Below, one piece after another: positions 24,298-63,951 of a stretch of 64,000 nucleotides of DNA (position 1 is its first letter; the number at the start of each line of letters is the position of its first letter). The stretch is from positions 1-64,000 of the forward strand of contig NZ_LFQR01000045.1 of the NCBI RefSeq assembly GCF_001182895.1, in the 5' to 3' direction. The notes under the pieces are model-generated. The model was given only the letters and a program-made list of their open reading frames with translations, did not search any database and was not told the origin of the DNA. The position numbers were made by a program, and so were the translations under genes. The stretch is from Frateuria defendens. Its GTDB lineage: Bacteria > Pseudomonadota > Gammaproteobacteria > Xanthomonadales > Rhodanobacteraceae.

Positions 24298-24637
24298 AAG
24301 CCTGTTCACGATCTTGCCGTCGATGCGCCAGAGCCTGGAGGTCGATGCGCCAGAGCCTGGAGCGAGCCTTGCGGTAGCCATGTGCGCGTGCCCCGCTCTT
24401 GCTCGTCGCTCCGGCGCAGCCCGGACAAGCGCGCAGAGCGCAGAACGTCCGAAGGACGGCCCCGCAGGGGCGAGTGGAGCGAGTCATCCAGCGCCGCGCG
24501 TCCCGAGTGAGCCGAGGCTTATCGTGATCTGGCCGGCCTTTGGCCAGCCAGACCGCAACAAACCTCCAACAGCACGGCACGCCTTCCCGCACGCTCCCCC
24601 TCTCCCGACCATAGGGAGAGGGATGCGGGTTGCACGT
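24298..24637. other. Non-coding repeat-rich interval
   Basis: No gene is seen. It opens with GCCTGTTCACGATC, related to GCTTGTTCACGAT at 33130 and to the 18000 element end. A 22-bp unit (24319-24340, containing GATGCGCCAGAGCCTGG) is repeated in tandem at 24341-24362. Further on are small palindromes such as GTCC-GAA-GGAC and GCCCC-GCA-GGGGC. Confidence 0.6.
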
Positions 24638-26037: not shown

Positions 26038-26592
26038 TTACTTCTTGGTCTTGGTCTTGGTCTTGGCGACCTTGGAGGCCTTCACCACCTTGGCGGGTGC
26101 GGCCTTCTTCACGGCGACCTTCTTCGGGGCGGCCTTCTTCACCGCGACCTTCTTGACGGCAACCTTCTTCACCGCGGCCTTCTTGGCGGCCGCCGGCTTC
26201 TTCGCAGCCGCCTTCTTGGCGACCTTCTTCACGGCGGCCTTCTTGACGGCCGGCTTCTTGGCGACCGGCTTCTTGACGGCGGCCTTCTTTACAGCGGTCT
26301 TCTTGACGGCCTTCTTGGCCGCCGGTTTCTTGGCAGTGGTTTTCTTGGCAGTGGCCATGGTTCGTCTCAGCTCCTCATCAGTTGGCAGTGGTTGCCCAGT
26401 AAAAGCATGCAGGAACGCCTCCACCAGCAAATCGCTGTTGGTGGCGTGCCGAAGATTGTTCACCTGGCGATGGGTGCGCAGATCCGACAGCAACCTCAAA
26501 ACATGAAGCGGGATGGATACCGTGATCTTGCGTACCGCGCCGGCCTTTTCACCATGCTCGACATAAGGCTCTACGAAGTTGTTTATCGCCAT
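26038..26592 (-). CDS. metJ: MetJ-type methionine repressor fused to histone-H1-like Lys/Ala tail
   Basis: A 184-residue protein of two parts. Residues 1-78 match MetJ very closely: KITVSIPL (the DNA-contacting beta-strand), [12 protein letters not shown] and [16 protein letters not shown] (the helices that bind S-adenosylmethionine and dimerise). Residues 79-184 are a Lys/Ala/Val/Pro repeat ([19 protein letters not shown] and so on) like bacterial H1 homologues. The tail replaces the C-terminal helix of E. coli MetJ (about 104 residues). The single frame has no interruption and a GGAAG site before the ATG. Expected role: SAM-dependent repression of methionine genes, with added non-specific DNA binding. 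metB lies elsewhere in the window. Met79 begins MATAKKTT, an H1-like start, and could be an internal initiation site. Confidence 0.9.
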
Positions 26593-49999: not shown

Positions 50000-51673
50000 C
50001 TAATGGGCTAACTCACAAAATCTTTGGCCTAGAAAAGCATAGACCCTAATACCATCGCCCGATCGACTGAATGCCGTCCAGCCAGACTCTCGGCCAGCAG
50101 AAGGGATGATTTTATATACGTCGACTCGCTCTCGCCCCGTTACGCCATATCCGACCGTTTTCCCGTCCACGCCGGCAACCACAATAAGAACATTCTTGTC
50201 ACTGTATTTCCGTGGTGCCACCCACCCCGAAACGACGTAGCCGCTCGCATCCTTAGTGACGGTATCCACGCGCCCTTCGCAAATGCCAGGATCCAATTTA
50301 GTCGGATCAAACTGCACCATGCCAGCATCGTGCAACCACCCCTTGCCGTACATCCCGATCTGATATCGGTCAGCGATATCACTGAGCTGGACAAGCGTAT
50401 CGTGTCTGTCTTCGGGAAAAATCTTTGCATCGTATTCGGGGTGATCAATGCCAATTTTCAGGCCCAATACCGCCAGCTCACGTTCGTACAAATCCGGATT
50501 CGTTGCCCATGAGCCAGTTTGGGTCGTTGTCAGTGCCGCGAGAACAAACGTCGCGATCGCCACTATCCACCCACGGCTTCGATCCGACCGAAAAACATCC
50601 AATGCCAACATAAAAAGCAATGCATACCCAAGAAGAGGCGTCGTCTCATAACGATAAGAAGCAGCACCGACAAATCCCAGCATCCATCGCCCATGGGCTG
50701 CCGCCAAGGCGGACGCAACGACTATACCAATCCCCCCAATCAGGAACGACCTGAACGGATTGACTTGGCGCTTCAGGTACAGCCAGGCCACAAGAGCACC
50801 GGCAACAAGTAAATAAATAATTCCTGCAGTAGCAGCAAGGAAAAGGCTTCCGTGCCCAACATGAAAGATCGGACCACCAAGAAATATTGCCAGGTATTTC
50901 GCTTGCGCGAAATGAACAGCAGCCATGTCAGGAGCCACAGGTAACTCCGGAGCATGAAAGTGAATCAGATAAAGCGCGAGCGCCAGGCCCCCCGCGACGC
51001 CCATGATTACAGACTCCCGCAGCGGGCGCCGCTGTACCATGCCCTGTATCGCAGCAACAAAGAATGAAGCGATACCGTTCCCCATTGCAAGCGTGGCAGC
51101 CGTGCAAAAAAGCAGTGCCAAAGAAATATTACGAGCCCGGTCTTCAGATTTTGAGAAATACAGAAAAGCTAGCAACGAAAAGACATAAATTGCGATGCAC
51201 TGACTTTCGAACCCCCACACAATATTTTGATATTGAATCCAAGAGAAAACAAAACCAAAGACGATCGCGCCAATCCATAATTTCATGTCACCTTTATAGG
51301 CATAAATCAGAATGCACCCAATTGAACCGAGCAAAATAAGATTGCATACAATCAAAAAGACATTGACCCCTCCAAAAAATCCAATATCAAAAAGAAATAA
51401 GATTCTTGAAAAGACGATACGATGTTCGTTATGCGGCTCCCAAAAAACAGCCCAATCACCCTCGCGAATCCTCTGGTAAAATCCGACACCGCCAACCCAT
51501 TGGTCCCACCACTGAACCGGTGAATAGTTGTGGTATGCCCCATAGATCGTCGTTACCAATATAAAAATACTGGCAACAAACGAGATGACAGTCGCAATCC
51601 AAAAGAAAAGCTTTATGGGCCGCCCCCCCGAAATCGCTTCGATGCTGAAATATCCTTTTCGCGTATATGCCAT
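50000..51673 (-). CDS. Polytopic membrane protein, candidate GT-C glycosyltransferase
   Basis: A 557-residue protein with about ten membrane segments up to residue 390 and a soluble C-terminal domain (about 400-557) of beta-rich character. The first extracytoplasmic loop has acidic and aromatic residues (PVQWWDQW) and the motif WEPHNEHRIVFSR, a pattern I associate with GT-C-like O-antigen enzymes. It could transfer a sugar from polyprenyl phosphate in the periplasm, for example the pentofuranose made by the neighbouring cassette. The DNA is clearly AT-richer than its surroundings, with A-runs and rare-codon use, indicating recent transfer. AGAGGT precedes the ATG at 51673. No confirmed family. 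Confidence 0.7.
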   Translation of the reverse strand: MAYTRKGYFSIEAISGGRPIKLFFWIATVISFVASIFILVTTIYGAYHNYSPVQWWDQWVGGVGFYQRIREGDWAVFWEPHNEHRIVFSRILFLFDIGFFGGVNVFLIVCNLILLGSIGCILIYAYKGDMKLWIGAIVFGFVFSWIQYQNIVWGFESQCIAIYVFSLLAFLYFSKSEDRARNISLALLFCTAATLAMGNGIASFFVAAIQGMVQRRPLRESVIMGVAGGLALALYLIHFHAPELPVAPDMAAVHFAQAKYLAIFLGGPIFHVGHGSLFLAATAGIIYLLVAGALVAWLYLKRQVNPFRSFLIGGIGIVVASALAAAHGRWMLGFVGAASYRYETTPLLGYALLFMLALDVFRSDRSRGWIVAIATFVLAALTTTQTGSWATNPDLYERELAVLGLKIGIDHPEYDAKIFPEDRHDTLVQLSDIADRYQIGMYGKGWLHDAGMVQFDPTKLDPGICEGRVDTVTKDASGYVVSGWVAPRKYSDKNVLIVVAGVDGKTVGYGVTGRERVDVYKIIPSAGRESGWTAFSRSGDGIRVYAFLGQRFCELAH

Positions 51674-52189: not shown

Positions 52190-53275
<1,086 letters not shown>

Positions 53276-53311: not shown

Positions 53312-54484
53312 TTAAAGGGCGAAAATTTCGCGCAGGGCTGGAAGCCTGCTCTCCCAGGAATATTCCCGTAAACAGACTTGCCGCGCCACAAGCCCCACTT
53401 TCCGGTTGTACTCGATCGAAGCGAGGAGGTCTATGCAAGCACGCGAGAACTCCGTTGCGTTTTCCGCCAACCGGATGCTGTGCCCATCCTTATACGCGAA
53501 GCCTTTGCCTGCCAGTGTCGAGGCAACACAAGGCACACCCACGATCGCATACTGATTGATCTTACCACGCATTCCAGCCCCGCTCAGCGCAGGCGCGATT
53601 CCTACCCATGCATGGCAGAGCTCACCCACCAGGGAGTCGACCTCTCCCACCAAGTCGACGCTAGCATCGGCGCTAGCGGGTAGATGCGACAGCCCCCTGC
53701 CCACCACCCTGAATCTATACCCGGGCACCGCGACCTTGATCGCCGGGTGAACATACTCGAGATACCAGTTCAGTGCTTCGATGTTGGTCTGTGAACCGAA
53801 ATAGGCCAGGAAGGTAACTGTGGGGGCCTCTTTCAAAAGGCGTACCGGCAGCGACCGCAACGCCTCGCCGAACTCGACCGCCGAAACGCCCGTTTCGATA
53901 GGGATCACCCCACCCCAGAAGCGCAGCTTGCGCAGCGACCTCGCGTCGCTCTCGGAGACGCACATGACACGATCCGCGCTCCAGACTGCGCGGAGTTCGC
54001 GTACCGCCACACGCAGTTCGCCCAGAAGCCATCGCTTCGTTGGCACAAAAGGCACTTGCTGTCGCGCCAAAGCGAGGGCTGCGCCTCTCACATGCGACTC
54101 CATCGGCGAAACCACCACACGAGGGAAGCCGCACCGCTTGAACAAGCGCACCAAGTCCCCAGCCTGAAGGAATTGTAAGTCGACGGCGTCAAACCGCTCC
54201 TCCAGCAGGCCGGTGGCATGAAGACCGCCCTCGTTGAACTGCTCCGGTGGCAATGTCATCACTCGCTCGAAGATCGAGGAAAGATCCGACTCGAGCCCGG
54301 CTCCGTGGTCGCAAGCCAGCAACGTCAGCGATAGGCCAGGCACCTCTTGCGACAGCAATCGGTACATATCCAGCAGCCGCAGCCCACCGCCTGTACCTCG
54401 CTCAGGTGGATAGTAGGTAACCAACAGCAGTCGCTTCCTAAGAAGCGATGGCTCGGCCGCCATGGGCGATCCGGCGCCCTTCAT
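53312..54484 (-). CDS. GT4-like glycosyltransferase
   Basis: A 390-residue GT-B protein. The N-terminal domain starts LLLVTYYPPERGTGGGLRLLDMY; the C-terminal domain has VTFLAYFGSQTNIEALNWYLEYVHPAI, VVGRGL and APALSGAGMRGKINQYAIVGVPCVAS, a typical nucleotide-sugar binding arrangement, here with a shortened acidic motif. Start ATG 54484 overlaps the stop of the 68-residue gene (ATGA) with GGAAAG upstream; ATG 54463 is an alternative. It probably adds one sugar of the O-antigen repeat. Confidence 0.85.
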   Translation of the reverse strand: MKGAGSPMAAEPSLLRKRLLLVTYYPPERGTGGGLRLLDMYRLLSQEVPGLSLTLLACDHGAGLESDLSSIFERVMTLPPEQFNEGGLHATGLLEERFDAVDLQFLQAGDLVRLFKRCGFPRVVVSPMESHVRGAALALARQQVPFVPTKRWLLGELRVAVRELRAVWSADRVMCVSESDARSLRKLRFWGGVIPIETGVSAVEFGEALRSLPVRLLKEAPTVTFLAYFGSQTNIEALNWYLEYVHPAIKVAVPGYRFRVVGRGLSHLPASADASVDLVGEVDSLVGELCHAWVGIAPALSGAGMRGKINQYAIVGVPCVASTLAGKGFAYKDGHSIRLAENATEFSRACIDLLASIEYNRKVGLVARQVCLREYSWESRLPALREIFAL

Positions 54485-54687
54485 TGCACTACTTTCCGAT
54501 TGTCCGGGCCGAATAAGCGCTCGATGATGCTCCAAGTCGCGCCATGGGGGCCATCATCCATGAAGTTGATAGTGCTCTGCACCGGCATAACACCGCACGC
54601 CTGCAAATCCTCCATGATCTCTGTCATGCACTGGGCCGTCACATTGAGCACGGCCACTCCTGACTCCGCCTCTAGTGACACGATCAC
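54481..54687 (-). CDS. Small conserved-context protein of unknown function (68 residues)
   Basis: GTG start at 54687 with GGAGG seven bases upstream (inside the end of the previous gene) and a stop overlapping the next ATG (ATGA). The protein (MIVSLEAESGVAVLNVTAQ ... GATWSIIERLFGPDNRKVVQ) is soluble and acidic, and no known motif is seen. Precise coupling on both sides argues that it is translated. It could be a small accessory to the flanking glycosyltransferases. Confidence 0.65.
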   Translation of the reverse strand: MIVSLEAESGVAVLNVTAQCMTEIMEDLQACGVMPVQSTINFMDDGPHGATWSIIERLFGPDNRKVVQ

Positions 54688-54688
54688 C

Positions 54689-56734
54689 TCAACGCCTCCA
54701 CAGCATGGCGTTTAGTCGCGATAGCCCGCTCTTGTGCCACACCTTGCGTGCGAACACATAATATGGGCGCACGCGCTCGGCAAAATGATTGAACCGATCC
54801 AGACCCGGCAAAGTAGGCACTGGCGGCATGCCATGGCCACTGAGCCGGTCCGCCACTTCGATCGCCGCCAGCGATTCGTGAAAGGCATCGTAGAGCGCGT
54901 TGATCTCGTGAGTGAAGTTGGTGGGCATGTCGTACTGCAGTGCCCAGAACCCCTTCGCTTGTACCTGCGCATGCATAGCGTGATAGCGATGGAAGTAGCC
55001 TTCCGGCACACGCAGCGTGAGATGGCGCGAACGATGCGTCTCGACGGCACTGTCCCTAGCCCGCAATACGACGGCCAGCGCCAACAGGACATCGAAACGC
55101 ACCAGCGACGGTAGGTCCAGGGCCGCCAGGGCTGCGTGACTGAAGAACAGCGTGCCCACCTGATGCTCAGCGATGCTGTCCTGTGTCCAACGGTACAGGC
55201 CTTTCGAACTGCTGTTACGCAAGATGCCGGCCGCGCTGGCCGGCGCCGGCGCGGTGAATGCGTTGACGAAAAATCCGGCAACGAACAAGGTTGGCTCGCC
55301 CCTGCGCACCGGGTCGCAGGACCACTTGAGCGCCTTCTCGAAGAAGTCATACTGCGGATAGTCGAGCTGGTTGAAGAAAACGGCGAAATCGCCTTCCGCC
55401 CGCTCAGCGGCCGCAGCGAGCTTGATACCGAAACGCAACTTGCTCCACTCGGCGACCTCCTGGCGTGGCGGCAGGAAGCGGAATTCGACATTGGCCGGCA
55501 GGTCACTGGGAGCCCCCTGTGTCCAGCGCGGGCTCTGCACGCAGATGCGTACGTGGTGACGCGATTGGTTTTGCAATTCGCTGGCAGCGCGCAGCACGTA
55601 CGCCAGATTGGGGAATACTTTGCTTCCCTCCTGGCCATGCGCAGGCCCGAACGGATCGTGGTCGATCAGAAACACGTCAATCGTCGAACTGGTGTCAGCC
55701 GCCTCGAGCGCCGCGCGATGTTGCTCGTGGATCGTCGCCAACGCTGCGTCGAGCTTGACCTCAAAAGAATACTTTTCGGCGATCAACTTCTGCGCCTCAC
55801 GGACTCGCCGAGCAGCCTCCCCAGGATCGGAGAGGATTTTGCGGAGAGCCGCCTGAATCGAGTCGGCCCGCTCTCCCTCTGTGCCCCCGGAGAAGTAATA
55901 GACCAAGTCACCGAACTGCTCGATAACGTGGGGGTTGCAGTCAGAGATCACAGGCGTGCCGGAGGCCAGACCCTCGAACACGCGGCCGGAAGCGGTCCGG
56001 GATTTCAGGTGCGCCGGCGACGAGACCGCTAGCACGGCCCCATACTGCCGCATGGTTTCGAACATGCTGACACCATCGAATGGGATCTCGCCGCGGTAGG
56101 AGGTGAAGCCCGCCCATGGATCGATGCCTTCTAGTTTTCGCGGCCCGTAAAAATCGGCGATGCCACGCTCTTGCAGTACGTCAAGGAGCCCTTGTGCACG
56201 GCCAGACTTGCCTACGCCACGCTCCCAGTTGACACCGCAATAGAACACTTTCGAAGCTTCCGGAGCGGCTGCCGCTGCACCGATCGGATGCGGGGGAACC
56301 AGCGCGGTGCGCGAGCTGGAGCCGATCATAGATAGCCCGCTATCCTGCCATTCGCTGCCCAGCACCTGACGGATGTGACTCTTCAGTAGCGAAGAACCAT
56401 TAAACAGATAATCATCGTAAGCGCGCAGATGCTGGATCAGGTTCACCCGATAGTTCGACTGGAAATGCATGAATTCCAGTGGATTGGCGACCCACAGGAA
56501 CGTACGCACGTTCAGGAATTTCGGCGTGTCGTAGTGAAAAGAGATCGCGAAGTCGTACTTATCCGGCATCTGTACGTCGTTGATGCAGGCACCGGTTGCG
56601 ACGTCAAAACCAAGGAAATCGACCACTGTGACGGGATAGCCGGTCTTGCGCATCTTCTCGATGAGTTCGTATTCGGCATTCTTGATTTTTGGCCACTGCG
56701 AGATGACCAGAATTCGAGGAGCATTGCCCGTCAT
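54689..56734 (-). CDS. Large two-part glycosyltransferase
   Basis: A 681-residue protein. The first part (about 1-345) is a GT-B/GT4-like enzyme (ILVISQWPKIKNAEYELIEKM, FYCGVNWERGVGKSGRAQGLLDVL, RTASGRVFEGLASGTPVISDCNP). The second part (about 355-681) is less clear (VFLIDHDPFGPAHGQEGSKVFPNLAYVLRAA, FFNQLDYPQYDF, EGYFHRYHAMHAQVQAKGFW) and may be a second sugar-binding or transferase domain. The start at 56734 (MTGNAPRIL) overlaps the stop of the epimerase gene (TGATG). Specificity unknown. Confidence 0.8.
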   Translation of the reverse strand: MTGNAPRILVISQWPKIKNAEYELIEKMRKTGYPVTVVDFLGFDVATGACINDVQMPDKYDFAISFHYDTPKFLNVRTFLWVANPLEFMHFQSNYRVNLIQHLRAYDDYLFNGSSLLKSHIRQVLGSEWQDSGLSMIGSSSRTALVPPHPIGAAAAAPEASKVFYCGVNWERGVGKSGRAQGLLDVLQERGIADFYGPRKLEGIDPWAGFTSYRGEIPFDGVSMFETMRQYGAVLAVSSPAHLKSRTASGRVFEGLASGTPVISDCNPHVIEQFGDLVYYFSGGTEGERADSIQAALRKILSDPGEAARRVREAQKLIAEKYSFEVKLDAALATIHEQHRAALEAADTSSTIDVFLIDHDPFGPAHGQEGSKVFPNLAYVLRAASELQNQSRHHVRICVQSPRWTQGAPSDLPANVEFRFLPPRQEVAEWSKLRFGIKLAAAAERAEGDFAVFFNQLDYPQYDFFEKALKWSCDPVRRGEPTLFVAGFFVNAFTAPAPASAAGILRNSSSKGLYRWTQDSIAEHQVGTLFFSHAALAALDLPSLVRFDVLLALAVVLRARDSAVETHRSRHLTLRVPEGYFHRYHAMHAQVQAKGFWALQYDMPTNFTHEINALYDAFHESLAAIEVADRLSGHGMPPVPTLPGLDRFNHFAERVRPYYVFARKVWHKSGLSRLNAMLWRR

Positions 56735-57663
56735 CAGACTGCGCCTTCCTGCGTGACATACCAGTTCCAAGTCTTTTCCAGACCTTCCTTGAGTGTGTTC
56801 TCGCTCTTGAACCCAGCAGCTGTAATCTTGCTCAAATCATAGCCCAGGTACTCGCGGCCATTTGGTTTGGTCGAATCCCAATCGACCCGCCCCTGCATTT
56901 CGGACACATCGGTCAACGCCTCGACCATTTCACGAATGGTATAGACGTTGCCGCTACCAATATTCACCGGACCCTGGACGTTCTCCATCGCGAGCAATGC
57001 CGCCTTGGCCGCGTCCTCCACATAGAGGAAATCGCGCTGAGCAGTGCCATCGCCCCAAACCGCCACCCTGGCGCCATTGCGCTTGGCGTCGTGGAAGCGT
57101 TTGATCAGCGAAGGGATGACGTGGCCCTGTTCGGCATCGAAGCGGTCGCGCGGTCCGAACAGGTTGCACGAAACGATGTAAGTCCAGTCCATGCCGTAAC
57201 TTTCACCGTACGCACGCAGCATCCCGAGCATCGCGCGCTTCGCGTGCGAATACGAATCCTCTGACTTATGCGGCTCGCCAAGGAAGATCATCTCTTCAGT
57301 GAAGGGAAGCGCCGGCGGCGGATATGGATAGACGGCACCTGTGCCCATCACAGCAATCTTGCGAACACCGGCTTTGTGTGAGGCGTCCACGACGCTGGTG
57401 TTGATCAGCACGTTGTCGTAGAACGACAGCGCCTTGTTGTTCATGTTACCCATGATGCCGTAGACACGCCCGGCCGCATGGAACACATACTGCGGAGCGA
57501 TCTTGGCGAAGTAGCGACGGGTCGCCGGCAGGTCCGTGAGGTCACACTCTTCACGCCCCACGCCAATGACGTTCTGGTAACCAAGCCCCCGCAGGTACTC
57601 CACCATCGCGGAACCGAACAGGCCACGCGCCCCGGTGACTACGATCCTGTCTTCCTTCTTCAT
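56734..57663 (-). CDS. GDP-L-fucose-synthase-like NAD-dependent epimerase
   Basis: A 309-residue extended SDR with VTGARGLFGSAMVEYLRGLGY, VFHAAGRVYGIMGNM, the catalytic YSHAKRAML (Tyr-xxx-Lys) and SCNLFGPRDRFD. These fit the Fcl/WcaG family that converts the Gmd product to GDP-L-fucose by epimerisation and reduction; a GDP-rhamnose or perosamine branch cannot be excluded. GAGAG precedes the ATG at 57663. It overlaps the downstream glycosyltransferase gene by one base. Confidence 0.85.
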   Translation of the reverse strand: MKKEDRIVVTGARGLFGSAMVEYLRGLGYQNVIGVGREECDLTDLPATRRYFAKIAPQYVFHAAGRVYGIMGNMNNKALSFYDNVLINTSVVDASHKAGVRKIAVMGTGAVYPYPPPALPFTEEMIFLGEPHKSEDSYSHAKRAMLGMLRAYGESYGMDWTYIVSCNLFGPRDRFDAEQGHVIPSLIKRFHDAKRNGARVAVWGDGTAQRDFLYVEDAAKAALLAMENVQGPVNIGSGNVYTIREMVEALTDVSEMQGRVDWDSTKPNGREYLGYDLSKITAAGFKSENTLKEGLEKTWNWYVTQEGAV

Positions 57664-57788: not shown

Positions 57789-60470
57789 CTATGAGGCCCG
57801 CCCGGTCAGTTCGGTCAGCGCCTCAAGCCGGCGCGTCCGATCCTCCAACTCGGCCGCGACTTGATCGAGCACCTGAGTGCGCTCGACCAGGGTCAGCTGG
57901 CTCACCTCAAGCATATGCCTCGCCTCAGCCAGTTCGGCCTGCGCCGACTCCAGCCGCCTGGTGCGATCAACCAGTTGATCCCCTGCAAGCTGAAGAGCAG
58001 AGGTGCGCTCTACGAGCAAGGCGCACACCTCCCCTAGCCGCTCCCGAAGCCCAGCCTGCTGATCACACGCGCCCCCCTGGCGCGAGAGCCTATCCTGCAG
58101 ATCCGACGGCGCTTCGTCCAGACCTGCTGTCCTCTCACTGAGCAAAGCCTGCAGATCACCGACTTCCTTCTGAGTCTGCACGAGCAGCGTATTGGAAGCT
58201 TCGAGTAGCCTAGTCCGTTCCTCAAGCTGCACACTGATGTTTTCCAGAGCGCGAGTGCGCTCAATCAGAGTCTCGCGGACCTCGACCAGTTCGTTAGTCC
58301 TGTCAAGTAGGTCGCGGGTAGCCGCCTCGAGCCGCTGGGTACGGCCATGGAACTCGGCACGTAGCTCGACCAGGTCGTCGATGCGGTCCTTGAGTTGTTC
58401 ACGCGCACGATTGAGATCACGCGTGACCACCTCGTACTCGCCCGTAAAGTTGGTCTCCAGCGCCTGGACGTCGACATCCAGGCCGTCTGCCAGCAGGTGC
58501 AGCCCGTTAGCGCAGCGGGCGATATTATCCCAAGCCAACGTGTATTCACGCACGCCATCACCGTGGTTGAAGAGATTCGGGTGTTCCGGACGGAGCACGA
58601 TGTCCTCGACCCGAGCTGACAGCAGCGTCCGCCCCACACCAAGGCCAGTGCTCCAGTGCTCACGAGCTTGCTCGGGCCGGCCAAGCGCCAACGCCAGCCG
58701 ACCAGCCTCGTACCAGGACGCCGTGGTCTTGGTCAACAGATGAACGCCGAAGCGGCGAGCGTCGATACCAGCACAGGCGACAAAGGCCTCGAGCGCTTCC
58801 TGCAGTCGCCCTCGTGCACGCAACAGGAGCGCCTTCACGTACGCGAGCGAGACGCGCCAACGCAACACCATCCGATTCTCGCCGCCCACCATCGGGTAAC
58901 AGTCCAGCTCATCCAGCAATGCATCGATGGCACTCGCATCCGGCAACGACGACTCCAGCAGAGCGTACGCCCTCACGCACAGTGCGGCTCCATAGTCGGC
59001 GGCGTCGCGCGGGGATTCTTGCAGTACGCGGGACACATACTTGTTACGCAGTGAAGGTAACGACGCCCGCTGCCCGATGGTTATCATCGCAAGCCCAAGC
59101 CAGGGATTGGCGTACTCGTCGGCATACCGCACCGACGGGTGGCCGGATGGCGCAACGTTCCCGAACACTCGCTCGCTGTATTCCGCCTGCACGAAGGGCG
59201 ACTTCATACCCACCATCAGCCACCACTCAGCGCTGTGCGCACGCTGCGTAGCCGGATCGACGGGATAGAGCTCGCGCTGCTTGCGCTCCCAGACGAAGCG
59301 CTGGCCGATGACCTTGGCCTGGCTGGCCGATTGCACGTACGCCGCCTCGACATCGAAGTCCGATGCGATCTCGGCTCTCAGTCGATCCAGATCGTACACC
59401 TGCAGGTGATAGGGATTCGGATCTTCGCCGCTCTCGTCGCTCCAGTCATTCGGCACGCTGACGATGACCCTTCCGCCGGGTGTCAGCACGCGATGGAACT
59501 CCTTCAGCAGGCCACGCGGGTCTTCGACATGCTCAAGCGTTTCGAACGAGATGATGGTATCGAAGCTGGCATCGGGATAATTCCGAAGTGCCTCCGGCAG
59601 GAAGCCGCAAACATATTCTCCACGCTGGCTTCCCTCGGCGTAGCAACGATTGGCGTAGTCCACCGCGTAAGGGCTACCGTCAATACCGATCACGCAGGAT
59701 GCACGCGTCAGCGAGCGCACTACATGTGCACCGTAACCCAGACCGCATGCCGCATCCAGCACGCGGTCATGCGGCCGGACGAACTCGCAGGCCCACTGGT
59801 AGCGGATCACATGTGCATCGGAACGCTCGCCCGTATCCCGCAACATATCCATGTGCAGGCCTCGCTCTTCCTCGAGCGCGGACAACGGATATTCTTCCAG
59901 AGCAGCATCCGGGATGCGCTCGAGGGCGATTAGTACGCGTTCGCCGTCGTGATTGAGCGACTCATATGGATTGAGACGATAGTAACGCGGATGCTTGCGG
60001 AAGCCGGCAGCAAAGCACAACCGCTCCCACCAGGCGCGCGACTTCCCCCAGGAGCCGGCCGTGGCCGCGTCCTTCAGCGGAGCAGCCACGTCAACCTCCA
60101 GCACGACATGGCGTTTTGTGACACGTCGCATTTCGGCTAGTGCGCTTACGATCTGGGCCTGATCCAACCACTCCAGACAACCATTGGAAACCACCACATC
60201 GAAAGAGCTGTCCGCGAATGGCATGGCCATCGCGTCACCTTCCCGGAAACGACCAGGCATGCGCACATTGGCGCGTTCAACTAGAGCGTGGTCCGAGTCC
60301 AGCCCGAAGGCATCGATATCCCGCCGCAGCAAGGCGGCGACGAGACAACCCTCGCCTGATCCCACATCCAGGACATTACCCAGACCACAAGCCAAGACGA
60401 TGGCATCGGCCATCGCAACCACGTCGCTCTCTTTAAGCGCCTGGCCAGGATAGCGCTCACGTGTTTTCAT
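57789..60470 (-). CDS. Two-domain methyltransferase with long C-terminal coiled coil (WbdD-like chain terminator candidate)
   Basis: An 893-residue protein. Methyltransferase domain 1 has VLDVGSGEG at 33-41, domain 2 has VLDAACGLGYG at 237-247 with SFETLEHVEDPRGLLKEFHRVLTPGG. A helical TPR-like middle follows (about 450-640). Residues 679-888 are fifteen back-to-back 14-residue repeats built on L-x-x-R-T-x-x-L. No kinase domain like that of E. coli WbdD is seen. By analogy it would methylate the non-reducing end of the O-polysaccharide to stop growth, with the coiled coil setting chain length. It sits directly downstream of wzt. Start MKTRERYPGQ at 60470 has GGAGAG five bases before; ATG 60485 is an alternative. 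Confidence 0.85.
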   Translation of the reverse strand: MKTRERYPGQALKESDVVAMADAIVLACGLGNVLDVGSGEGCLVAALLRRDIDAFGLDSDHALVERANVRMPGRFREGDAMAMPFADSSFDVVVSNGCLEWLDQAQIVSALAEMRRVTKRHVVLEVDVAAPLKDAATAGSWGKSRAWWERLCFAAGFRKHPRYYRLNPYESLNHDGERVLIALERIPDAALEEYPLSALEEERGLHMDMLRDTGERSDAHVIRYQWACEFVRPHDRVLDAACGLGYGAHVVRSLTRASCVIGIDGSPYAVDYANRCYAEGSQRGEYVCGFLPEALRNYPDASFDTIISFETLEHVEDPRGLLKEFHRVLTPGGRVIVSVPNDWSDESGEDPNPYHLQVYDLDRLRAEIASDFDVEAAYVQSASQAKVIGQRFVWERKQRELYPVDPATQRAHSAEWWLMVGMKSPFVQAEYSERVFGNVAPSGHPSVRYADEYANPWLGLAMITIGQRASLPSLRNKYVSRVLQESPRDAADYGAALCVRAYALLESSLPDASAIDALLDELDCYPMVGGENRMVLRWRVSLAYVKALLLRARGRLQEALEAFVACAGIDARRFGVHLLTKTTASWYEAGRLALALGRPEQAREHWSTGLGVGRTLLSARVEDIVLRPEHPNLFNHGDGVREYTLAWDNIARCANGLHLLADGLDVDVQALETNFTGEYEVVTRDLNRAREQLKDRIDDLVELRAEFHGRTQRLEAATRDLLDRTNELVEVRETLIERTRALENISVQLEERTRLLEASNTLLVQTQKEVGDLQALLSERTAGLDEAPSDLQDRLSRQGGACDQQAGLRERLGEVCALLVERTSALQLAGDQLVDRTRRLESAQAELAEARHMLEVSQLTLVERTQVLDQVAAELEDRTRRLEALTELTGRAS
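57807..58436 (-). repeat. Fifteen tandem 42-bp (14-residue) coiled-coil repeats
   Basis: Coding repeats in unbroken register at the 3' end of the methyltransferase gene. The best units are LVERTSALQLAGDQ, LVDRTRRLESAQAE, LVERTQVLDQVAAE and LEDRTRRLEALTEL; three central units (starting LVQTQ, LQDRL and QAGLR) have lost the RT motif but keep the length. DNA identity between units is only moderate, so the array is old. Confidence 0.85.
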
Positions 60471-60514
60471 CGTGCTCTCCACCATACTAACTGCTCGTCA
60501 TCTATCCAAACGCG

Positions 60515-61888
60515 TTACCAGTGCGCCTTCATCCTCAGATCGAGCGCACCACCGAAGAAATATTCATCATTCTTCATGAGCACCTGAAAGAACGCAGCCT
60601 CGTCGACCCAATGAAGCATGCGCTGGGCGAGATAATCAGGCGTATCCTCATAGGAAACCGATGCCTGGACCTCATAGAGATTGACTCCTAGATTGCAGTC
60701 GCACTCCAGCACTACCTCGAAGCGCTCGCCCTTGCTGATCGTGCGGTCCCAGAATTTTTCCGCCGAACTGGATTCGGCCATCCGCTGCATGTCCTGATTG
60801 AGCGTGCCCCAGGAATAGAGCTTTACGCCCTCCTTGTTGCGGATCCGCACCCCCACCGAAAGCTTGCGCGTGGAGATCTGCGATTCGCAGACGACTTTGA
60901 TGCGCAGGCGATCACCCGGATAGAAGACGCTAGTCGTTTCGTCATCCGCATTGCGGATGGTAACGCTGACGATGTGCACACCACCGTCACCGAAGGCAAG
61001 ACGGTCCGAGCCCGACATCGCGGTCGCGGCAGCCAGCGGCGTCTCGACCACCGGCTCCTCGCCGGCGTCTGCCGCTGCCTCGCTCTTCAACATCTCGGTG
61101 AGACTGCTGAAGTATGCCGCCTCCTCGTCGTGGAGCAACCTGCGGTAGTGAAGCACGACATTCGAGGAGGGGCCCCAGTCACGCTGGCTGCCATTGCTCA
61201 AGAGCAGGCAACGGTTCGTCAAGGTGCGGATGCTTTCCTGATCATGCGAGACGAACAACAGGGACATTCCGTCAGACACAAGCTTTTCGATGCGCTGGAA
61301 GCAACGCTTCTGGAACAGCGCATCGCCCACCGCAAGGGCTTCGTCGACGATGAGTATGTCCGGCTCCACCTGAACCTGGACGGCGAACGCCAGCCGGACC
61401 AACATGCCGCTGGAATATGTCTTCACTGGTTGATCGAGGTGATTGCCGATGTCGGCGAAAGCGGCAATGGTATCGAACTTGCGATCGATCTCCTCGCGCG
61501 AGAAACCCAGCAGCGCGGCATTGAGATAAACGTTCTCGCGCCCAGTGAACTCCGGATTGAATCCGGAGCCCAGCTCCAGCAGTGCAGCAACCCGTCCTTT
61601 GACCACCGCCCTGCCCAGCGTCGGTGCCAGCGTCCCAGTCACGATCTGCAGTAAGGTACTCTTGCCGCTGCCATTGCGACCAAGGATACCGACCGATTCG
61701 CCGCGCTTGACGTCGAACGAGACATCGCGCAACGCCCAGAATTCCTTGAAATACTCACGCTCGAACATGCCCAGGGCGCGCCGCAGGCGCGGCAGCACGA
61801 ACTGTTTCATGCGATCGCGGGGAGTCTCATACATCTCGTAACGCTTCGAGACCGACTCGACGTGGACGGCCACTTCCTCAGAGGACAT
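60515..61888 (-). CDS. wzt: O-antigen ABC transporter ATPase with C-terminal carbohydrate-binding domain (Wzt)
   Basis: A 457-residue protein. The ATPase (about 1-250) has Walker A GRNGSGKST, signature YSSGMLVRLAFAV, Walker B DILIVDEALAVGD and switch SHDQES. Residues about 300-457 form an extra beta-sandwich domain (VHIVSVTIRNADDETTSVFYPGDRLRIKV, KLYSWGTLNQD), the type that binds the capped end of O-polysaccharide in Wzt. The start at 61888 (MSSEEVAVHVESVSKRY) overlaps the wzm end by 11 bases. The adjacent methyltransferase is the likely source of the cap that it recognises. Confidence 0.95.
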   Translation of the reverse strand: MSSEEVAVHVESVSKRYEMYETPRDRMKQFVLPRLRRALGMFEREYFKEFWALRDVSFDVKRGESVGILGRNGSGKSTLLQIVTGTLAPTLGRAVVKGRVAALLELGSGFNPEFTGRENVYLNAALLGFSREEIDRKFDTIAAFADIGNHLDQPVKTYSSGMLVRLAFAVQVQVEPDILIVDEALAVGDALFQKRCFQRIEKLVSDGMSLLFVSHDQESIRTLTNRCLLLSNGSQRDWGPSSNVVLHYRRLLHDEEAAYFSSLTEMLKSEAAADAGEEPVVETPLAAATAMSGSDRLAFGDGGVHIVSVTIRNADDETTSVFYPGDRLRIKVVCESQISTRKLSVGVRIRNKEGVKLYSWGTLNQDMQRMAESSSAEKFWDRTISKGERFEVVLECDCNLGVNLYEVQASVSYEDTPDYLAQRMLHWVDEAAFFQVLMKNDEYFFGGALDLRMKAHW

Positions 61889-62723
61889 CGGCAAAACCCT
61901 TGCGCGTCTTCTGGAACCAGGCATAGCCCAGCATAATCACCACGATGCCGATGACCATGGAAGTGCACCACGGCAGCAGCCTGGGCAATTCCCCGAAAAC
62001 AAGCACGTTGCGACTTTCCTCAATGATGTAGGTAAGTGGATTGAGATTCATCCAGGGTCGAACCCAAACCGGCAGCGAAGATGCTGGATAGAAGACCGGC
62101 GACAGGAACAACATGATGCTGGAGAGCACTCCGGTCACCTGAGAGATATCGCGCAGGTAGACGCCGGACGATGAAAGCAACCAGGCCACTCCCGCCATCT
62201 GCAGCACCAGCGGCAACAACACCAGCGGGAAGAAAACCGCCGTCCAGGGAACGCCAACCGCAAGAACTACCTGCGCGACAAGCAGCACGGCCACGCTAAT
62301 CGTCAGGTGGAACAGCGCCGAGCCAAGCAGCACCCAAACGAGCGAATCGAGCGGAAAGACAACCTTCTTGACGAAATTGACGTTGGAGATGATCAGAGAA
62401 GGCGCCTTGTTCAGGCACTCGGCGAAGAATCCGTGCACCGCTAGTCCGACGAACGCCAAGACTGCAAAATTGACCTTGTCCACGGCACCCTCGCCCACCC
62501 AGCGCACCTTCATGATGCTGGTGAACACAAACGTGTAGACCGACAGCATGAGTAACGGATTGAAAAAGGACCAGGCTGTGCCCAGGAAGGAGCCGCGATA
62601 ACGACCGATGACCTCACGCTTGACTAACTGCTGCAGTAATTGGCGATTGACCAAGAGCGAACGGACCATGCCTAGCGGGCTGGCGGACGCCCTGGAATAG
62701 GCATCAATGCGTTGAACTGACAT
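61878..62723 (-). CDS. wzm: O-antigen ABC transporter permease (Wzm)
   Basis: A 281-residue ABC-2 type permease with six membrane segments and the conserved N-terminal LVKREVIGRYRGSFLGTAWSFFNPLLMLSVYTFVF and late LFLSPVFYPASSLP and NLNPLTYIIEESRNVL. It exports undecaprenyl-linked O-polysaccharide across the inner membrane together with Wzt. ATG 62723 (MSVQRIDAY) is used; ATG 62735 (MKPNMSV) is equally possible because neither has a strong ribosome-binding site. The start is 43 bases after the metB stop. Confidence 0.95.
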   Translation of the reverse strand: MSVQRIDAYSRASASPLGMVRSLLVNRQLLQQLVKREVIGRYRGSFLGTAWSFFNPLLMLSVYTFVFTSIMKVRWVGEGAVDKVNFAVLAFVGLAVHGFFAECLNKAPSLIISNVNFVKKVVFPLDSLVWVLLGSALFHLTISVAVLLVAQVVLAVGVPWTAVFFPLVLLPLVLQMAGVAWLLSSSGVYLRDISQVTGVLSSIMLFLSPVFYPASSLPVWVRPWMNLNPLTYIIEESRNVLVFGELPRLLPWCTSMVIGIVVIMLGYAWFQKTRKGFADVL

Positions 62724-62766
62724 GTTCGGCTTCATGAGCGGGCGAAGAGAAATGCGCACGCGCAGG

Positions 62767-63951
62767 TCATGACTGCACCAGCGCGCAGGCCAAATCCTCC
62801 CGGAGATCCCCATACTCCTCTACGCCCACGCTCAACCGCACCAGCGAGTCGCTAATGCCGAGCCGCTCACGGCGCTCGACCGGCACCGAGGCGTGGGTCA
62901 TGACCGCGGGGACATTGATCAGGCTTTCCACACCACCGAGGGATTCGGCCAGGGCGAACAGGCGGGTGCGCTCGCAGAGTGCCTTGGCTGCGCCGGCTCC
63001 ACCCTTGAGTTCAAGCGAGACGATGCCTCCGAAGCCGGGCATCTGGCGCGCGGCCAGCGCGTGCTGCGGGTGCGAGGCTAGACCCGGGTAGATTACCTTC
63101 TTGATCGCCGGGTGCTCCTGCAGCCATTGTGCTAGCGCCAAGGCGTTGTCGCAGTGCGCCCTCATACGCAGATGCAGGGTCTTGAGGCCGCGCAAGGCCA
63201 GAAAACTATCGAACGGCCCCTGCACGGCGCCAACGGAGTTCTGCAGGAATGCCAGTCGCTCGCCCATCTCGGCATCGTCACCGACCACGGCGACGCCACC
63301 AACTATGTCCGAGTGGCCATTGAGGTACTTGGTGGCCGAATGCACCACGATGTCCGCACCCAGCTCCAGCGGACGCTGCAGCATCGGCGACGCGAAAGTA
63401 TTGTCCACGACCAGGATCAACCCATGCTTCTTCGCGAAAGCGGCGACCTGGGCTAGGTCAACCAGCTTCAACATGGGATTGGTCGGCGTTTCGACCCAGA
63501 TCATGCGGGTCCGCGGCGTCAACGCCGCCTTCAGCACAGCCGCGTCGTTGAGATCAACAAAAGAAAAATCAAGACCGGCCGAGCGCCTGCGCACGCGCTC
63601 GAATAGGCGGTATGTGCCGCCGTAAAGATCATCCATCGCAATGATGTGGCTACCGGTGTCGAGCAGATCCAAGACCGTGCTGATCGCGGCCATCCCCGAG
63701 GCAAACGCGAAGCCTGCCCCCCCCCCCTCGAGGTCTGCAACGCAGCGCTCATAGGCCATGCGCGTCGGATTCTGCGTACGTGAGTACTCATAACCCTTGT
63801 GCTCGCCAGGACTCTGCTGCACATAGGTCGAAGTGGCATAGATCGGCGTCATGACGGCGCCGGTACTCGGATCGGGATGCTGGCCCGCATGGATAGCGCG
63901 CGTACCAAGCCCCAGAGCGGCTAACGGTGTCTTGGAAGGTGTTTTGATCAT
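62767..63951 (-). CDS. metB: Cystathionine gamma-synthase/lyase family PLP enzyme (MetB)
   Basis: A 394-residue trans-sulfuration enzyme. The PLP lysine lies in HSATKYLNGHSD; YSRTQNPTR, FASGMAAIS, VETPTNPML, VVDNTFASP and ESLGGVESLINVPAVMTH are family signatures. It catalyses cystathionine formation or cleavage in methionine metabolism. In Xanthomonas this gene borders the O-antigen locus opposite etfA. An 11-G run in the coding strand (63717-63727) encodes Gly-Gly-Gly in DLEGGGAGFAF. The ATG at 63951 gives normal length. Upstream sequence is only 49 bases and shows no met box. Confidence 0.95.
   Translation of the reverse strand: MIKTPSKTPLAALGLGTRAIHAGQHPDPSTGAVMTPIYATSTYVQQSPGEHKGYEYSRTQNPTRMAYERCVADLEGGGAGFAFASGMAAISTVLDLLDTGSHIIAMDDLYGGTYRLFERVRRRSAGLDFSFVDLNDAAVLKAALTPRTRMIWVETPTNPMLKLVDLAQVAAFAKKHGLILVVDNTFASPMLQRPLELGADIVVHSATKYLNGHSDIVGGVAVVGDDAEMGERLAFLQNSVGAVQGPFDSFLALRGLKTLHLRMRAHCDNALALAQWLQEHPAIKKVIYPGLASHPQHALAARQMPGFGGIVSLELKGGAGAAKALCERTRLFALAESLGGVESLINVPAVMTHASVPVERRERLGISDSLVRLSVGVEEYGDLREDLACALVQS
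63717..63727 (-). repeat. Homopolymer of 11 G (coding strand) inside metB
   Basis: Eleven C on the plus strand, at codons for Glu-Gly-Gly-Gly-Ala near residue 77. It is the longest homopolymer I noticed in the window. Confidence 0.9.

What the first reader, a model, noticed from the sequence alone, without database searches (positions are those of the whole stretch)
57807..58436. Fifteen in-register 14-residue repeats as a candidate molecular ruler
The C-terminal 210 residues of the methyltransferase are unbroken double-heptad units. Units that have lost the consensus still keep exactly 14 residues, which suggests selection on length and register. In E. coli O9a the coiled coil of WbdD sets O-antigen length; a continuous coil of 210 residues would be about 31 nm. 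Repeat number could therefore tune polysaccharide length between strains.
Basis: partly seen in the sequence, partly recalled or inferred. Interest (0 to 1): 0.72.

Follow-up and report, generated by a model that had tools for sequence, protein, structure and literature searches.

The report
Repeat-built spacer in sugar-chain capping enzyme
A bacterial enzyme that probably caps growing surface sugar chains carries a long rod made of fifteen 14-residue repeats, and because its relatives gain or lose whole repeats while keeping the helix in register, the rod may act as a ruler whose length evolves by adding or removing repeat units.

Summary
An 898-aa protein (57789-60485, minus strand) ends in exactly 15 x 14 residues at the stated coordinates; the periodicity is 6.5 SD above shuffles. 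The gene follows wzm-wzt and encodes two SAM-methyltransferase domains, a TPR-like bundle and the repeat rod. Best reading: the chain-capping enzyme of an ABC-transporter-exported O-polysaccharide, with a coiled-coil ruler working like WbdD but lacking its kinase and C-terminal amphipathic helix. Two coil-less homologues lie in flagellar loci of genomes lacking Wzt_C. Two close orthologues carry 13 and about 9.6 units; one lacks exactly 42 residues (3 units). In related genomes the first gene after wzt carries a coil in 94 of 122 cases (10 of 221 for the next genes); DNA tandem arrays concentrate there, periods are mostly multiples of 7 residues, and orthologues often differ by whole units (14 to 196 residues). 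So register is kept; length is not. AlphaFold predicts a 178-residue unbroken helix in an orthologue but a break at residues 804-812 here, so a continuous 31-nm coil is doubtful. Chain-length control is inferred, not shown. The mechanism class is known; I found no report of natural repeat-number variation as its length-setting device.

The parts
57789..60485 (-). CDS, 898 aa: MT1 - MT2 - TPR-like bundle - 14-aa-repeat coil
59916..60431 (-). MT1, aa 19-190: SAM-methyltransferase fold with intact VLDVGSGEG motif; the motif is degenerate in the G047 and G063 homologues
   Evidence: Pfam Methyltransf_25 etc.; VIA-align Z 19.6 to CgnL 7pd7; alignment
59196..59885 (-). MT2, aa 201-430: SAM methyltransferase, VLDAACGLGYG and SFETLEHV; most conserved part
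   Evidence: Pfam Methyltransf_11; near-invariant columns in 11 homologues; fold matches Z 17-19
58449..59126 (-). TPR-like helical bundle, aa 454-679
   Evidence: AlphaFold helices; weak TPR_2 matches in 5 of 6 homologues
57807..58436 (-). Repeat region: fifteen 14-residue units, aa 684-893
58050..58076 (-). Predicted helix break, aa 804-812, in degenerate units 9-10 (LQDRLSRQGGACDQ QAGLRERLGEVCAL)
   Evidence: AlphaFold break; absent in orthologue model; lowest coil score
57792..57806 (-). C-terminal tail TGRAS; no amphipathic helix
60515..61924 (-). wzt: ABC transporter ATPase with Wzt_C (terminus-binding) domain
   Evidence: Pfam ABC_tran and Wzt_C
61878..62813 (-). wzm: ABC-2 type transporter permease
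   Evidence: Pfam ABC2_membrane
56734..57663 (-). NAD-dependent epimerase/reductase, GDP-fucose-synthase-like
54689..56770 (-). Glycosyltransferase, candidate polymerase component
   Evidence: Pfam Glyco_trans_1_2
53312..54535 (-). Glycosyltransferase group 1
   Evidence: Pfam Glyco_trans_1_4
52190..53275 (-). gmd, GDP-mannose 4,6-dehydratase
   Evidence: TIGR01472 above cutoff

Best explanation
The protein is the chain terminator of an ABC-transporter-dependent O-polysaccharide. The N-terminal methyltransferase part (MT2, perhaps with MT1) caps the non-reducing end of the growing chain; the Wzt C-terminal domain then recognises the cap for export. The C-terminal repeat rod is an oligomeric coiled coil that holds the capping site away from the polymerising glycosyltransferases at the membrane, so that only chains long enough to reach it are capped. 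Rod length evolves by gain and loss of whole in-register repeats. Shown here: repeats, domains, gene context, coil absent in two flagellar-locus homologues, register-preserving length changes between orthologues. Inferred: capping activity, oligomerisation, how the distal end is held at the membrane, control of chain length.
For: Gene order metB-wzm-wzt-this gene, with 30 bp between wzt and the gene. Same position after wzt in L005, L006, L007, G047, G063, G473, G500 and G426. Coil-less homologues G844 and G1147 come from genomes without Wzt_C and lie beside flagellin, maf, fleQ, fliD, flgK and flgI genes. First ORF after wzt has >=28 coil residues in 61/79 loci against 2/144 for the next two ORFs, Fisher 1e-35; enlarged set 94/122 against 10/221. 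Coil turnover: L006 lacks exactly 42 aa relative to L005; the window has 28 aa more than L005. G047 has a 28-aa array, L007 a 28-aa array and G063 a 14-aa periodicity in the same place with unrelated sequences. Position-specific conservation in the coil: Arg4 100%, Leu1 and Leu8 83%, positions 2, 6, 10 and 13 only 17-33%. An orthologue is modelled as one 178-residue helix. Literature: terminators carry a coiled-coil ruler (PMC11231755); truncations and insertions in the WbdD coil change modal chain length (PMC5082667).
Against: No activity, oligomeric state or LPS ladder is known. AlphaFold confidence in the coil is modest (pLDDT about 50-76) and the helix breaks at 804-812. The coil score passes 0.5 for only 76 of 210 residues (shuffle mean 28, maximum 102) and for no residue in the L007, G047 and G063 homologues. 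No C-terminal amphipathic helix to hold the distal end at the membrane. The length variation is also compatible with neutral drift of a spacer.
Confidence: 0.7

Rival explanations
1. The rod is a passive oligomerisation and scaffold element: it holds the terminator in a complex with glycosyltransferases, and its length is neutral as long as register is kept.
For: Length differs widely between close orthologues (42 aa in L005/L006; 196 aa in L063/L083), while register is kept; the window protein seems to tolerate a break in the middle.
Against: In WbdD coil length is reported to set modal chain length (PMC5082667), and the coil is tied to the wzt pathway, not to the enzyme core.
Confidence: 0.2
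2. The protein makes internal O-methyl groups along the polymer rather than a terminal cap; a different gene terminates the chain.
For: Two methyltransferase domains; the coil-less homologues sit in flagellar loci, where such enzymes could decorate glycans.
Against: Position right after a wzt with Wzt_C, and a coil, which is the marker of terminators in characterised systems (PMC11231755).
Confidence: 0.12
3. It is a GT137-type glycosyltransferase terminator (as in K. pneumoniae O4): the methyltransferase-like domains form a sugar-transfer module and the cap is Kdo or another sugar.
For: The reported ORF7-O4 architecture is nearly the same: two methyltransferase-like Rossmann domains, a TPR-like bundle, then a coil.
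Against: Both domains keep SAM motifs here and match methyltransferase families strongly; the O4 protein had no functional predictions in the Conserved Domain Database. The O4 sequence could not be compared.
Confidence: 0.08

Closest known systems
WbdD of E. coli O9a
   Same: N-terminal methyltransferase, long C-terminal coil, gene in a wzm-wzt cluster, presumed cap-and-export role
   Different: No kinase domain; a second methyltransferase domain and a TPR-like bundle instead; no C-terminal amphipathic helix; coil made of 14-residue repeats
ORF7-O4 (GT137) of Klebsiella pneumoniae O4
   Same: Architecture: two methyltransferase-like Rossmann domains, TPR-like bundle, C-terminal coil; chain terminator used with a CBM-bearing Wzt
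   Different: Here SAM motifs are intact and methyltransferase families match strongly; O4 transfers Kdo; sequence relationship not tested
ORF6-O7 of Klebsiella pneumoniae O7 and its orthologues
   Same: N-terminal methyltransferase whose nearest solved structure is CgnL 7pd7, which is also among the best matches of MT1 here; a coil after the catalytic part; some orthologues end after the coil
   Different: O7 has an atypical kinase, a CBM and C-terminal glycosyltransferase modules
E. coli O101/O162 rfb methyltransferase
   Same: N-terminal methyltransferase and C-terminal coil, proposed molecular ruler (PMC13168486)
   Different: One methyltransferase domain; no TPR-like bundle or in-register repeats described in the passages read

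Membership tests
Coiled-coil chain terminators of ABC-transporter-dependent O-polysaccharides | N-terminal terminating catalytic domain | tested here: met
   Two methyltransferase domains by Pfam and fold comparison; terminating activity itself not tested
Coiled-coil chain terminators of ABC-transporter-dependent O-polysaccharides | Extended coiled coil between the catalytic part and the membrane or polymerase end | tested here: met
   15 x 14 aa with heptad-type core conservation and long predicted helices; confidence modest
Coiled-coil chain terminators of ABC-transporter-dependent O-polysaccharides | Gene in a wzm-wzt cluster with a terminus-binding domain on Wzt | tested here: met
   Wzt_C E 3e-19, adjacent gene
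Coiled-coil chain terminators of ABC-transporter-dependent O-polysaccharides | Coil length sets O-polysaccharide modal length | not testable with these tools
   Needs LPS gels or mass spectrometry
WbdD (E. coli O9a type) | Kinase domain after the methyltransferase | tested here: not met
   No kinase family in the Pfam scan; a second methyltransferase and a helical bundle occupy that position
WbdD (E. coli O9a type) | C-terminal membrane-associated amphipathic helix | tested here: not met
   Best-scoring 18-mer near the C-terminus has moment 0.07 and charge -2; the ORF ends right after the repeats. Sequence test only
WbdD (E. coli O9a type) | Trimer | not testable with these tools
   R-T-x-x-L-E in many units resembles the R-h-x-x-h-E trimer motif with Thr at h (own knowledge; a lead only)
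GT137 (ORF7-O4) | Two methyltransferase-like Rossmann domains, TPR-like bundle, coil | tested here: met
   AlphaFold domain order against the published description
GT137 (ORF7-O4) | CMP-Kdo transfer by a non-methyltransferase module; sequence homology | tested here: inconclusive

The most novel reading that the evidence does not exclude
In Xanthomonadales the chain terminator next to wzt carries a fast-evolving, register-preserving tandem-repeat rod, and repeat copy number is the heritable dial that sets O-antigen length between lineages: a repeat-coded molecular ruler. The window protein is an old, sequence-diverged example of the same process.
Probability: 0.35. Interest if true: 0.75.

Novelty: new variant of a known kind. 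Interest (0 to 1): 0.6.

Why it matters
How bacteria set and change the length of their surface sugar chains is known in detail for a few model strains. If rod length in natural terminators changes by whole repeats, genome sequence alone would predict relative O-antigen lengths, and the ruler model could be tested on natural strains that differ by 1 to 7 repeat units, without engineering. The coil-less relatives in flagellar loci also suggest how a ruler was joined to an existing enzyme.

Tried and rejected
A pair of compensating frameshifts as the cause of degenerate units 9-10: read in three frames, not supported. A recent DNA tandem array in the window: none there. A longer coil cut off by a late stop in the window, L005 or L006: no conserved coil after the stops. 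Sequence match of the coil to solved structures: only chance-level coiled coils. Only 3 of 233 family genomes carry this enzyme type, so the survey was widened to whatever gene follows wzt. The L049 repeat (YRPNIAS) was excluded because it borders masked bases. Searches of open papers for natural repeat variation in such rulers found none, but the key 2015 WbdD ruler paper is not in the library and the 2020 review was not read. WbdD itself is not among the listed fold matches; that excludes nothing.

Full report
Observation. The stated interval 57807-58436 (minus strand) is residues 684-893 of an 898-residue ORF (57789-60485) and divides into exactly fifteen 14-residue units with a 5-residue tail. 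Lag-14 self-identity is 46/196 against 19.5 +/- 4.1 in 20,000 shuffles, none of which reached it; identity is raised only at multiples of 7. The consensus is L-x-[ED]-R-T-x-x-L-E-x-[AVL]-x-x-x. The units are old at DNA level (mean identity 0.42; no TRF array).

Anatomy. Pfam and fold comparison give two SAM-methyltransferase domains, followed by a helical bundle with weak TPR matches, then the repeat rod. MT2 is the near-invariant part across 11 homologues; the MT1 SAM motif is degenerate in the G047 and G063 homologues. AlphaFold (mean pLDDT 74) makes residues 683-790 one helix, breaks at 804-812 inside the most degenerate units 9-10 and resumes at 813-855. In the orthologue L005 the same region is a single helix of 178 residues. 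So a continuous rod is the likely ancestral state, and the window protein may have a hinge. Position-wise conservation among orthologous units is highest at Arg4, Leu1, Leu8 and Thr5 and lowest at positions 2, 6, 10 and 13.

Context. The order is metB - wzm - wzt (with Wzt_C) - this gene - GDP-sugar reductase - two glycosyltransferases - gmd. In eight homologous loci (L005, L006, L007, G047, G063, G473, G500, G426) the gene lies directly after wzm-wzt. In two of these, G500 and G426 (L031, L032), an MT protein with a short coil is followed by a second protein with a degenerate MT region, the bundle, a coil and an amphipathic tail. L035 is only a methyltransferase-level match. Two distant homologues without any coil (G844, G1147) come from genomes with no Wzt_C match and lie beside flagellar genes. 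The coil therefore goes with the ABC-transporter pathway and not with the enzyme core; this rests on two coil-less cases.

Length evolution in this family. From the same anchor the window has 215 residues, L005 187 and L006 135. L006 lacks exactly 42 residues (three units) relative to L005, while the window exceeds L005 by exactly 28; L006 also ends about 10 residues early, which is not a heptad multiple. Outside the coil the window-L005 gaps are 2 and 5 residues. More distant homologues carry unrelated repeats in the same place: 28-residue arrays in G047 and L007, and a 14-residue periodicity in G063.

Wider survey. Wzt_C is found in 197 of 230 genomes of the window's family. In 79 of their wzt loci the first same-strand ORF after wzt has at least 28 predicted coil residues in 61, against 2 of 144 for the next two ORFs; with more loci 94 of 122 against 10 of 221. 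DNA tandem arrays occur in 24 of 121 such ORFs and 9 of 1453 other ORFs, several of the 9 being terminators that my filter missed; 17 of 23 periods are multiples of 7 residues. Between independent orthologue pairs of at least 55% identity, 11 of 23 net coil length changes of 7 or more residues are multiples of 7 (expected 3.3; p = 1.3e-4). Examples are 14 (L088/L091), 28 (L063/L074), 42 (L111/L154, L133/L135), and 196 = 7 x 28 (L063/L083). Non-multiples also exist (18, 62, 169, 188, 254). Unit-sized changes are what repeat slippage or recombination produces; that the units themselves are mostly heptad multiples is what points to selection on register. Nothing here shows selection on length. 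Some of these assemblies are drafts, so individual copy numbers need long-read confirmation.

Mechanism. Published systems establish that terminators capping the chain carry a coiled-coil ruler and that coil truncations or insertions shift modal length (PMC5082667; PMC11231755). By anatomy and context this protein most likely works the same way. Capping chemistry, oligomeric state, how the distal end is held (no amphipathic helix) and the effect on chain length are inferred.

Comparison. It works like WbdD but is not a WbdD: kinase and C-terminal amphipathic helix were tested and not met. The closest described architecture is K. pneumoniae O4 ORF7 (GT137); the best structural matches of MT1 include CgnL, which is also the nearest reported for the O7 terminator. 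I file it as a new variant within the coiled-coil terminators, on layout and context.

Noticed in passing
window 26043-26354 (minus strand): Lysine/alanine-rich AAKKxAVKK tail of a histone-H1-like small protein, visible as 15- and 30-bp tandem repeats.
   Followed up: no
window 24319-24362: Exact 22-bp tandem duplication; not a multiple of three.
   Followed up: no
L031 8401-12686 and L032 6444-10720: The terminator appears split into two adjacent genes: an MT protein with a short coil, then a degenerate-MT protein with the helical bundle, a coil and a basic amphipathic C-terminal helix.
   Followed up: partly
wzt-adjacent ORFs of the survey (L037-L176): An SxSWx[hydrophobic][TS] motif in 52 of 121 ORFs, after the coil in those read; looks like a basic amphipathic segment that could be the membrane end. 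Absent in the window protein.
   Followed up: partly
L038 and L048: Non-heptad repeat period of 46 residues (138 bp, 90-91% match), perhaps five heptads plus a hendecad.
   Followed up: no
window 50000-51673 (minus strand): 557-aa predicted membrane protein in the cluster without any Pfam or NCBIfam match.
   Followed up: no
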